From: Candidatus Cloacimonetes bacterium HGW-Cloacimonetes-3
Lineage (GTDB): Bacteria; Cloacimonadota; Cloacimonadia; Cloacimonadales; Cloacimonadaceae
Assembly (NCBI GenBank): GCA_002840645.1
Contig: PHBO01000018.1
Coordinates: 1-42,805, forward strand
Length of the DNA: 42,805 nucleotides
Reading direction: 5' to 3'
Of the stretch, positions 17,636-20,460 are shown piece by piece. A program made the translations under genes and the position numbers. The first letter of the stretch is position 1; each line of letters begins with the position of its first letter. Below the pieces are notes generated by a model. The model was given only the letters and a program-made list of their open reading frames with translations. It was not told the DNA's origin and searched no databases.

Positions 17636-19216
17636 ATGGAAGCTGAATTATTAACAATCAAGGAAGCAAGCCAATGGGCAAGCGAATTCTTGGGCAAAAG
17701 CGTATCTTCTTCGAATATATCTTACCTTGTCCAATATGGAAGAATCAGGAAGTTTGGAGCCAATGGCAGCACGCAAATTGATAAACATGATTTACTTGCA
17801 TATTACAAAAGCTATAATGGCAAACGAGAGAGTGATTGGAAAGATAAGCTGGGTAGCGATTTAAACTGGGCTTTATCCTTTGACCACTTAAGGGAAGTCG
17901 ATACAACGAAGCATGTCCATAGATTACATCCTTATAAGGGCAAGTTTATCCCTCAATTGGTAGAATACTTCTTGGATGGTCACGTGGATGAATACAAGAA
18001 GGAAGTGTTTTTCCATCAGGGTGACATCGTCCTTGATCCTTTCTGTGGGAGTGGGACTACTTTAGTGCAAGCATCCGAACTTGGGATTAATGCCATTGGG
18101 ATTGATGTATCGGCATTCAATGCGTGCATTTCTAATACAAAAGTTATCCGCTACAATCCAGTGGAACTTCTTTCAGAAGTAAAACAAATTAGCAAGGCTT
18201 TAAGGCTATATTTAACAGATAATAACACTCTTGCCTTTGAAGAAAGGGTTCTGGAAGAACTGGGCAAATTCAACAAAGAGTACTTCCCTGTGCCAGAATT
18301 CAAGTATAAAGTTCAGAATAGATTGATTAATGGTGATGAATGGGGAGCGAAAAAGGAAGCTGAATTTCTTCCTGTATTCAACAGACTCGTTGAAGAATAC
18401 GGGATTAAACTACTCCAGTCTAACAACAGTAGCTTCTTGGGCAAATGGTATTCCGAGCATATCAGAGGTGAGATAGATTTTGTTTTTGAGAAGATAAAAG
18501 CAGTTCAAAAGACAGAGCTTAAGATGATCCTAAGCATTATTCTTAGCAGAACAATGCGCTCTTGCCGTGCTACCACTCATGCTGATCTTGCCACTTTGAA
18601 AGAGCCAGTTACTACTACTTACTACTGTGCAAAACATGGTAAGATATGTAAACCGCTGTTCTCTATTTTGAAATGGTGGGATTTCTATGCCAAAGACACA
18701 ATAAACAGACTGCAACAATTTAGTAAACTGAGAACCCTTACAAACCAGATATGCCTTATTGGTGACAGCCGTAGTATTGATATTGAAGAGAAACTGATAA
18801 CCAGAAACCCGCAATTGGCTTCCGAACTAAAGGCTAACAAGATAAAAGGTATCTTTTCATCTCCACCCTATGTAGGCTTGATTGATTACCATGAACAGCA
18901 TGCCTATGCTTATGATCTATTTGGTTTTGAACGCAAAGATGATCTGGAAATTGGTCCGCTATACAAGGGACAAGGCAAAGAAGCCAAGCTTTCATATACA
19001 AAAGGCATTGCAGATGTTCTGATAAACTGTAAAAGATACTTGGCAGACGATTACGATGTGTTTTTAGTAGCTAATGATAAATACAATCTCTATCCAACTA
19101 TAGCGGAATTAGCTGGAATGAGAATTGTAAACCAATACAAACGACCTGTACTGAATAGAACCGAAAAAGATAAAGGGGCGTATTCAGAGATAATATTCCA
19201 CTTGAAGCAGAAATAG
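17636..19216 (+). CDS. DNA methyltransferase (cytosine-N4/adenine-N6 type) with N-terminal helix-turn-helix
   Basis: This is a 526-residue modification enzyme of a type II restriction-modification pair. Residues 5-60 resemble an excisionase/MerR-like winged helix (LLTIKEASQW...GRIRKFGANGSTQIDKHDLL). The SAM-binding motif DPFCGSGT is at 134-141, and the catalytic motif SPPY comes late, at about 409. The order motif I, long middle region, motif IV fits the alpha group, and SPPY is typical of N4-cytosine enzymes. The 260 residues between would carry the target-recognition domain. The gene is AT-richer than its neighbours. The nuclease gene follows 8 bases downstream. The winged helix might autoregulate the pair, which is inference. 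Confidence 0.85.
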   Translation: MEAELLTIKEASQWASEFLGKSVSSSNISYLVQYGRIRKFGANGSTQIDKHDLLAYYKSYNGKRESDWKDKLGSDLNWALSFDHLREVDTTKHVHRLHPYKGKFIPQLVEYFLDGHVDEYKKEVFFHQGDIVLDPFCGSGTTLVQASELGINAIGIDVSAFNACISNTKVIRYNPVELLSEVKQISKALRLYLTDNNTLAFEERVLEELGKFNKEYFPVPEFKYKVQNRLINGDEWGAKKEAEFLPVFNRLVEEYGIKLLQSNNSSFLGKWYSEHIRGEIDFVFEKIKAVQKTELKMILSIILSRTMRSCRATTHADLATLKEPVTTTYYCAKHGKICKPLFSILKWWDFYAKDTINRLQQFSKLRTLTNQICLIGDSRSIDIEEKLITRNPQLASELKANKIKGIFSSPPYVGLIDYHEQHAYAYDLFGFERKDDLEIGPLYKGQGKEAKLSYTKGIADVLINCKRYLADDYDVFLVANDKYNLYPTIAELAGMRIVNQYKRPVLNRTEKDKGAYSEIIFHLKQK

Positions 19217-19224
19217 GAGTAACA

Positions 19225-20004
19225 ATGAGTTTATCGCAAGCAACAAAACTATCATTAACAAGTGTATTGAAAGCAAGCCTGATTAGAAAGATGCAAGGTT
19301 ACCATCCAGAAGCTTCTTACATGCCTTTTCATACGAGACTGCTTGGGAAAGACAGATTAGCCCTATATTCTTTTATCCACTCACTTAACACAAATTTTGG
19401 AACCACTATATTTGAACCCATTGCTAAAGAACTTGGTGATATTAATTTTGTATCTGCAACCTCACAGCAGGTTTCCGGAAAGCATATATCTTCTGAGGCT
19501 CATAAAGCTATTCAAACAATAATGGATAACCTATCAACAGCTAATGCAGAACCAAATAAAACCTTAGAAATTGAAACCATTAGGAAAGTGTGCACGCAGG
19601 GGACTATGGTCGCAGTAAAACCCACAAAAGTAGATGTTAAATTAATCTCTAAAAGTGGTACAATATACCTGATAGACATAAAAACTGCCAAACCTAATGC
19701 TGGTGGGTTCAAGGAGTTTAAAAGAACTTTATTAGAATGGGTAGCAGCTACACTTGCAGATGATCCAAAAGCAGATATACATACCTTGATTGCTATACCA
19801 TACAATCCCTATGAACCTGCTCCATATTCCAGGTGGACTATGAGAGGAATGCTTGACTTGGATCAAGAATTGAAGGTTGCATCTGAGTTTTGGGACTTTC
19901 TGGGTGGTAATGGAACTTACCAAGATTTACTTGATATCTTTGAGAAAGTAGGGATTGAACTGCGTTCTGAGATAGATGCATACTTTTCTAGATTTGTGAG
20001 GTAG
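19225..20004 (+). CDS. TdeIII-family type II restriction endonuclease
   Basis: This is a 259-residue nuclease. Its arrangement matches the TdeIII/MjaII family as I recall it: HTRLLGKDRLALYSFIHSLN near residue 36, IFEPIAKEL at 62, KPTKVDVKL at 132, LIDIKTAKPN at 149 and AIPYNPYEPAPYSRWTM followed by GMLD near 190. The likely PD-(D/E)xK site is D137 with D151-I-K153. Known members cut GGNCC; the same specificity here is inference. The start follows AGGAG by 6 bases and the methylase stop by 8, so modification and restriction genes are co-transcribed. The gene looks intact. Confidence 0.85.
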   Translation: MSLSQATKLSLTSVLKASLIRKMQGYHPEASYMPFHTRLLGKDRLALYSFIHSLNTNFGTTIFEPIAKELGDINFVSATSQQVSGKHISSEAHKAIQTIMDNLSTANAEPNKTLEIETIRKVCTQGTMVAVKPTKVDVKLISKSGTIYLIDIKTAKPNAGGFKEFKRTLLEWVAATLADDPKADIHTLIAIPYNPYEPAPYSRWTMRGMLDLDQELKVASEFWDFLGGNGTYQDLLDIFEKVGIELRSEIDAYFSRFVR

Positions 20005-20460
20005 AACAGAAAATCATGTAGTTCTTTTTAGAGCATGAGAAGCCTACCGCATATTTCTTTTCATACATAACATACTGTTGTATAATGAAATGCCCGTATA
20101 TAGCTTTTTATCCCGAAAAATAATCCCCAATTCTGTCCCCCAAATCGGTTTTTGTCCCCCACACTACTATGAAGAGTAAAAATGCAAACCCTGTTAAGGT
20201 GGAGTCGATTTGACCTTGGTATTCTTTAGCCGTGTTACAGTCTTAGCGGTCAAATGGACTACACCGGTTAGTTAAAGCACATGAATGTCGCAGTAGTCCA
20301 TGTCGCCGCAATGATAGGTAAGCACCCATAGACCGGATAGGCGACATCGACTCCAGACTTGGATTTGGGAGAAAAACTTGCAACAGATTTCGCTTGACAA
20401 TAATTGCCTTCCATCGATAAGGAAAGAAGTGCTAAAAACGCACGCACGAGGAACATATAA
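20005..20460. other. Intergenic region with four-helix junction and tandem TGTCCCCCA
   Basis: No gene is seen between the nuclease and glycogen phosphorylase. It holds two direct copies of TGTCCCCCA (20134-20142 and 20153-20161, 19-bp spacing), then the four-helix sequence at 20200-20355. A CTTGACAA box at 20393-20400 may belong to the glgP promoter. GCACGAGGAAC before the glgP ATG serves as ribosome site. Confidence 0.6.
20200..20355. ncRNA. Perfect four-way-junction sequence, possible structured RNA or DNA cruciform
   Basis: Four perfect helices abut: TGGAGTCGAT (20200-20209) with ATCGACTCCA (20346-20355); ATTTGACC (20208-20215) with GGTCAAAT (20248-20255); ATGGACTAC (20254-20262) with GTAGTCCAT (20293-20301); ATGTCGCC (20300-20307) with GGCGACAT (20340-20347). 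The dinucleotide AT at each junction recurs at exactly 46-nt steps (20208, 20254, 20300, 20346) and can pair in either neighbouring helix. Loops are 32, 30 and 32 nt. No known riboswitch or tRNA was recognised. RNA or DNA function, and strand, are undecided. Confidence 0.6.

What the first reader, a model, noticed from the sequence alone, without database searches (positions are those of the whole stretch)
20200..20355. Perfect four-way junction encoded with an exact 46-nt period
Four perfect helices of 8-10 bp abut head to tail and close a four-way junction. The AT at each junction recurs at 20208, 20254, 20300 and 20346, exactly 46 nt apart, and can pair with either neighbour, so the junction is mobile by 2 bp. 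The three arm loops are 32, 30 and 32 nt and share, at the same offset, a weak TTAGCCG / TAAAGCAC / TAAGCAC core while the stems differ in sequence, as expected if structure rather than sequence is kept. No known RNA class was recognised. It lies between an AT-rich restriction-modification pair and glgP, so it could be a leader RNA, an independent RNA, or a DNA site for a recombinase.
Basis: partly seen in the sequence, partly recalled or inferred. Interest (0 to 1): 0.78.

Follow-up and report, generated by a model that had tools for sequence, protein, structure and literature searches.

The report
Mobile palindrome pair of RAYT transposase
The perfect "four-way junction" is one copy of a short mobile repeat (two long-loop hairpins facing each other) that is scattered through these Cloacimonadota genomes and clusters around single-strand-DNA transposase (RAYT) genes; it is not a new RNA, but it is an unusual, long-loop version of the known REP/REPIN repeats.

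Summary
The four helices, the AT junctions 46 nt apart and the loop lengths are all really there and are not chance. The element is not unique. It is an inverted pair of a 78-nt unit that recurs 4-124 times in each of 7 of 9 genomes of this Cloacimonadota genus and more weakly in sister genera.

Each unit is an imperfect hairpin: a stem of about 14-17 bp with two conserved mismatches (G.A and G.G) and a 31-34-nt loop. Its stem covaries almost perfectly inside each unit. Between the two units of a pair, the informative stem position matches no better than random. So the hairpin is the conserved structure, and the four-way junction follows from placing two imperfect palindromes head to head. The 46-nt period is not conserved.

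Units bracket, or lie beside, Y1 HUH transposases homologous to E. coli TnpA-REP (RAYTs) in three genomes, including this one. Long-loop palindromes also flank half of 80 related RAYTs from many phyla. The window copy sits upstream of the glgP promoter and is absent at this site in most relatives.

Best reading: a REPIN-like non-autonomous element spread in trans by a RAYT. Compared with textbook REPs, the long loop and buried GGAG/GTAG are new. Transposition itself is inferred.

The parts
20193..20362 (.). Whole REPIN-like element: inverted pair (doublet) of two 78-nt hairpin units
   Evidence: covariance-model hits 67.7 and 65.4 bits; same +/- arrangement in 47 doublets among the listed hits
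20193..20270 (+). Unit 1 (left half): imperfect hairpin, 5' side AGGTGGAGTCGATTTGACC, 32-nt loop, 3' side GGTCAAATGGACTACACC, with mismatches G.A and G.G
   Evidence: R1 match E=1.1e-13; pairs counted
20285..20362 (-). Unit 2 (right half), on the minus strand: GTCTGGAGTCGATGTCGCC, 32-nt loop, GGCGACATGGACTACTGC
   Evidence: R1 match E=3.8e-13
20200..20209 (+). Outer end TGGAGTCGAT (GGAG core), 5' stem side of unit 1; also complementary to the other outer end
   Evidence: sequence; nearly invariant in 96 distinct units except the A/T at position 16
20346..20355 (-). Outer end TGGAGTCGAT of unit 2 (ATCGACTCCA on +)
   Evidence: sequence
20254..20262 (+). Inner end ATGGACTAC (reverse complement starts GTAG), 3' stem side of unit 1
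   Evidence: sequence
20293..20301 (-). Inner end of unit 2 (GTAGTCCAT on +)
   Evidence: sequence
20202..20261 (.). Conserved mismatch pair G20202.A20261 of unit 1 (unit 2: 20294/20353)
   Evidence: G.A in 87 of 96 distinct units
20207..20256 (.). Conserved mismatch pair G20207.G20256 of unit 1 (unit 2: 20299/20348)
   Evidence: G.G in 92 of 96 distinct units
20394..20399 (+). TTGACA, conserved -35-like box upstream of glgP, downstream of the element (context, not part of it)
   Evidence: present upstream of glgP in 8 genomes with or without the element

Best explanation
The feature is one copy of a REPIN/BIME-like non-autonomous mobile element of Cloacimonadota: two 78-nt imperfect hairpins, inverted towards each other with GGAG at the outer ends. 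Proposed mechanism: when the strand is single (lagging-strand template or extruded), each unit folds into a long-loop hairpin whose two fixed mismatches mark the strand. A Y1 HUH tyrosine transposase of the RAYT/TnpA-REP type, supplied in trans, recognises the hairpin, cuts next to it and moves the doublet to another site. Shown here: the repeat family, hairpin covariation, the conserved mismatches, the doublet orientation, the location around RAYT genes, and presence/absence at the glgP site. Inferred: recognition by the RAYT, the cleavage site, the single-stranded intermediate and actual transposition. The four-way junction is a by-product of having two imperfect palindromes in inverted order.
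For: Copies: a covariance model of one half finds 124, 82, 52, 23, 21, 9 and 4 copies in 7 of 9 genus genomes and weaker ones in sister genera. Hairpin: in the first 22 units 91.7% of cells pair, covariation score 0.376 against 0.102 for shuffles. In 96 distinct units, position 7 pairs in 99% with G-C, C-G, T-A and A-T all present, and positions 16-22 pair in 97-100%; the mismatches at positions 10 and 15 are conserved, with only 7% and 1% paired. Not the junction: between partners, position 7 matches in 41% against 38% for random partners. Orientation: 47 close +/- doublets among the listed hits. RAYT: the G007 RAYT gene (L071:1501-2076) is bracketed by doublets of the same family; in the own genome the RAYT at L075:568-1134 is bracketed by doublets of a sister subfamily (379+/485- and 1187+/1293-), and the RAYT on C12 has units on both sides. 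The proteins match NCBIfam REP_Tyr_transpos and Pfam Y1_Tnp and, by profile, E. coli TnpA-REP 4ER8 at E=1.3e-6. Generality: long-loop hairpins lie in 53 of 150 near flanks of 80 related RAYTs against 7 of 130 far flanks, p=2e-10. Mobility: the element is found upstream of glgP in the own genome and, as a half, in G006, but not in five other relatives with enough upstream sequence.
Against: No excision product or empty site with exact flanks was seen. No target-site duplication was demonstrated. All four RAYTs score below the NCBIfam curated cut-off (36-63 of 80 bits), so they are divergent. The GGAG/GTAG tetranucleotides are inside the stem rather than an unpaired 5' foot, and the loop is longer than any REP loop listed in PMC3733652. 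The RAYT that would serve the GGAGTCG subfamily in this genome was not identified: the two RAYTs found beside units here carry the GGAGTTC subfamily.
Confidence: 0.85

Rival explanations
1. The four-way junction itself is the selected structure: a cruciform or Holliday-like DNA site, or an RNA, recognised as a junction.
For: All four arms are perfect in this copy, and the same closed arrangement appears in many copies and flanks RAYTs in other phyla. Partners of a doublet rarely share the base at arm position 20 (1 of 35 against 9.8 expected), which hinders one long hairpin. The junction and the two hairpins have nearly equal computed energy.
Against: The outer and middle stems are nearly invariant family-wide, so their pairing between halves carries no information. 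At the variable stem position 7 the halves match only at random (41 vs 38%), while pairing inside the half is 99%. Many listed units are not in a close +/- doublet (60 of 154). The spans are not conserved.
Confidence: 0.07
2. Structured non-coding RNA or glgP leader.
For: The covarying structure would suit an RNA equally well.
Against: No Rfam match. Dozens of dispersed copies per genome, tandem clusters, and copies around transposase genes. The element lies upstream of the conserved TTGACA of glgP, and glgP orthologues in most relatives lack it.
Confidence: 0.04
3. Terminal-inverted-repeat MITE of a DDE transposase, with hairpins incidental.
For: Terminal inverted repeats AAGTnTGGAGTCGAT and a short length.
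Against: Pairing inside each half covaries at about 99%, which a double-strand-binding DDE transposase does not need. The genes seen between copies encode Y1 HUH transposases. DDE genes bounded by these ends were not searched for exhaustively.
Confidence: 0.03
4. Integron attC-like sites for a tyrosine recombinase that acts on folded single strands.
For: An imperfect hairpin with fixed unpaired bases resembles attC in principle (own knowledge of integrons, not tested).
Against: Units are inverted doublets, not direct repeats between cassettes. The associated enzyme is Y1 HUH. An IntI gene was not searched for.
Confidence: 0.01

Closest known systems
REPIN / BIME (inverted REP doublets) of Pseudomonas and E. 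coli (PMC3116915, PMC8266576)
   Same: Short inverted doublets, dispersed, tandem clusters, conserved ends with a spacer that varies by compensatory changes, fixed mismatches in the stem (E. coli), clusters around RAYT genes.
   Different: Unit has a 31-34-nt loop; GGAG/GTAG lies inside the stem; sequence unrelated; in the GGAGTCG family the partners differ in their arm sequences; Cloacimonadota host.
TIRYT / TIRtron (PMC3733652), TnpA-Y1 subclass 2.1 (PMC6006769)
   Same: Diverged RAYT flanked by long inverted repeats, some described as double palindromic and repeated as dimers or clusters. Motifs NHYH and YIHLNP in the G007 RAYT agree with the subclass 2.1 signature in Table 1 of PMC6006769.
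   Different: These proteins are about 190 aa (median 238 in subclass 2.1); a C-terminal HTH was not seen; no GGGGWSAS motif was seen in the repeats; PMC6006769 found no REP-like sequence beside subclass 2.1.
IS200/IS605 subterminal hairpins
   Same: Hairpins associated with a Y1 HUH transposase.
   Different: No autonomous element with one left and one right hairpin in direct orientation was seen; here the two hairpins are inverted.

Membership tests
REP/REPIN-RAYT system | Dispersed multicopy palindromes | tested here: met
   4-124 copies per genome in 7 genomes. Strict intergenic location was not tested genome-wide.
REP/REPIN-RAYT system | Stem-loop kept by compensatory change | tested here: met
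REP/REPIN-RAYT system | Copies flank a RAYT (Y1 HUH, class 2 signature Y---NP) | tested here: met
   L071, L075, L072, L081; NHYH and YIHxNP in alignment A3.
REP/REPIN-RAYT system | RAYT identity by curated family | tested here: inconclusive
   NF047646 hit at 36-63 bits, below the 80-bit cut-off; 4ER8 matched at E=1.3e-6.
REP/REPIN-RAYT system | Unpaired 5' GTAG (or GTGG) tetranucleotide at the foot of the hairpin | tested here: not met
   GGAG and GTAG occur but inside the stem, with the stem going on to positions 7-8.
REP/REPIN-RAYT system | Inverted doublets as the unit | tested here: met
   47 +/- doublets among the listed hits.
REP/REPIN-RAYT system | Cutting or movement by the RAYT | not testable with these tools
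   Needs an in vitro cleavage assay.
TIRYT (subclass 2.1) | NH[YF]H and Y[IV]HLNP motifs | tested here: met
   L071 protein: NHYH, YIHLNP; the other two aligned RAYTs have NHYH with YIHQNP and YIHMNP.
TIRYT (subclass 2.1) | C-terminal HTH extension, about 238 aa | tested here: not met
   About 190 aa and Pfam reports Y1_Tnp only.
Known Rfam RNA | Score at or above gathering threshold | tested here: not met
   none in the window.

The most novel reading that the evidence does not exclude
The doublet is recognised as a whole: the RAYT synapses two different hairpins in one folded strand and uses the four-way junction as a Holliday-like intermediate, with partner arms kept different so that the strand cannot collapse into one long hairpin.
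Probability: 0.08. Interest if true: 0.75.

Novelty: new variant of a known kind. Interest (0 to 1): 0.42.

Why it matters
PMC6006769 reports no REP-like sequence beside the large 2.1 subclass of Y1 transposases. Here, RAYTs with a 2.1-like signature are tied to a long-loop palindrome type, and half of 80 relatives (Cloacimonadota, Marinimicrobia, KSB1, Chloroflexi, a planctomycete, cyanobacteria and others) carry long-loop hairpins in their flanks. That gives a testable substrate for an uncharacterised group of transposases. The tendency of the two partners to differ may show how bacteria tolerate such palindromes.

Tried and rejected
RNA class: no Rfam match. Leader RNA of glgP: rejected by orthologue comparison. 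Link to the restriction-modification pair: dozens of copies lie elsewhere, so the neighbour is taken as incidental (the neighbours of all copies were not surveyed). Junction as selected unit: rejected by position 7. Partner-difference rule: significant in the GGAGTCG family (position 20: 1 of 35 vs 9.8 expected) but not in 8 doublets of the own GGAGTTC family (p=0.43), and identical arms are seen in a Leptolyngbya copy, so it is not general. Energies do not separate two hairpins from the junction. The open-frame test was uninformative (19 of 49 doublets have an open frame).

Full report
Observation. The four helices and the AT junctions at 20208, 20254, 20300 and 20346 are as described. The closed four-helix arrangement scores 33 bp; among 60 randomised windows the best was 25 and 59 had none of 24 or more.

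It is a repeat. A nucleotide search found a second copy in the same genome (C26) and many in three sister species. Reading them showed the same four-way arrangement with different arm sequences (TTGACC, TTGG, GTCGCC, CTGGCC, TTCACC, GTTGCC and others, each with its complement) and different spans. Each element is an inverted pair of one unit: GGAGTCGAT - arm - 31-34-nt loop - arm - ATGGACTAC. Units also occur alone and in tandem clusters.

The unit is a hairpin. In one unit GTCTGGAGTCGAT pairs with ATGGACTACAGAC except at two fixed places (G.A and G.G), then the arm follows. On 22 units 91.7% of cells pair, and the covariation score is 0.376 against 0.102 in shuffles and at most 0.07 for slid registers. 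A covariance model found 124, 82, 52, 23, 21, 9 and 4 copies in seven of nine genus genomes and weaker ones in sister genera.

Hairpin or junction. In 49 doublets (96 distinct units), position 7, just outside the invariant core, pairs inside the unit in 99% of cases with all four pair types present. Between the two units of a doublet it matches in 41%, random being 38%. A junction under selection would need the second match; a hairpin under selection needs the first. The outer and middle stems of the junction are nearly invariant across the family, so their perfection here carries no information. The junction is therefore the geometric result of two imperfect palindromes in inverted order. The 46-nt spacing is a property of this copy only.

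Doublets. Among the listed hits 47 close pairs are in the order +,-, with GGAG outward; the few -,+ neighbours lie mostly between tandem doublets. In the GGAGTCG family the two partners avoid having the same arm: position 20 agrees in 1 of 35 non-redundant doublets against 9.8 expected within genomes. This was not confirmed in a sister subfamily with 8 doublets. One possible reason is avoidance of a long perfect palindrome (inference).

Who moves it. Y1 transposase genes are present in eight of nine genus genomes. In G007 (Cloacimonetes bacterium UBA6081) a RAYT gene is bracketed by doublets of this very family, and pieces of the gene start are duplicated with them. In the window's own genome two RAYT genes have units on both sides, of a sister subfamily GGAGTTC..GGACTTC with 26 exact matches and none for the reversed control pattern. 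In G006 (L081) a RAYT lies inside a cluster of weaker units. The proteins match NCBIfam "REP-associated tyrosine transposase" below its cut-off, Pfam Y1_Tnp (three of four above its cut-off), and by profile the solved E. coli TnpA-REP 4ER8. Motifs NHYH and YIHLNP fit subclass 2.1 of PMC6006769 (Table 1).

Generality. Among 80 related RAYTs from many phyla, long-loop hairpins (12 of 13 pairs, loop 20-45) lie in 53 of 150 adjacent flanks and 7 of 130 distant flanks (p=2e-10; 40 loci), and four-way arrangements in 14 of 151 versus 1 of 132. The repeat sequences differ between phyla.

The site. All nine genomes encode glgP homologues; eight have a close orthologue of the window's glgP, and its TTGACA box is conserved. 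The element is upstream of that box in the own genome, a half with tandem remnants is present in G006, and none was found in G005, G007, G008, G001 or G002 (G004 has too little upstream sequence). So the element is an insertion near glgP, not its leader.

Comparison with the known. REPINs are inverted REP doublets with conserved ends and a spacer that changes by compensation, next to RAYTs (PMC3116915). E. coli REPs need a fixed mismatch bulge (PMC8266576). REP loops are 2-20 nt in the survey PMC3733652, and heterodimers and "double palindromic" inverted repeats beside diverged RAYTs (TIRYTs) are described there. The present family works like these. It departs in its 31-34-nt loop, in GGAG/GTAG lying inside the stem, and in the short 2.1-like RAYT. 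It is best filed as a new variant of REP/REPIN-RAYT, with the unpaired-foot criterion not met.

What remains inferred: recognition and cutting by the RAYT, the exact ends, and the single-stranded intermediate. Which RAYT served the window's GGAGTCG subfamily in this genome is unknown.

Noticed in passing
L071:1200-1275 and L142 (right of doublets): Tandem reiteration of the element's end plus a few flanking bases (TAAATTTAAGTGTGGAG several times; ATCGACTCCAGACTTGCC several times), as if ends were repeatedly cut and joined or slipped.
   Followed up: no
L072:2010-2060 (G000:C12): The RAYT gene of the own genome has a short tandem duplication (TTTACATTCACTTGAATCCTG twice) that ends the reading frame early at 148 aa.
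   Followed up: partly
G000, 26 places: A second, more abundant subfamily (GGAGTTC..GGACTTC) in the window's own genome, with the same architecture and located around two RAYT genes.
   Followed up: partly
L207, L218, L219, L221, L157, L176: RAYTs of Leptolyngbya, Chloroflexi and a planctomycete flanked by doublets of long-loop palindromes with unrelated sequences.
   Followed up: partly
window 19225-20004 and 17636-19216: TdeIII-type restriction endonuclease (PF09520, E=1.9e-88) beside an N6/N4 DNA methylase.
   Followed up: no
L071:2381-2428: A duplicated copy of the first codons of the RAYT gene lies between two doublets, suggesting that the doublet and gene start were duplicated together.
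   Followed up: no
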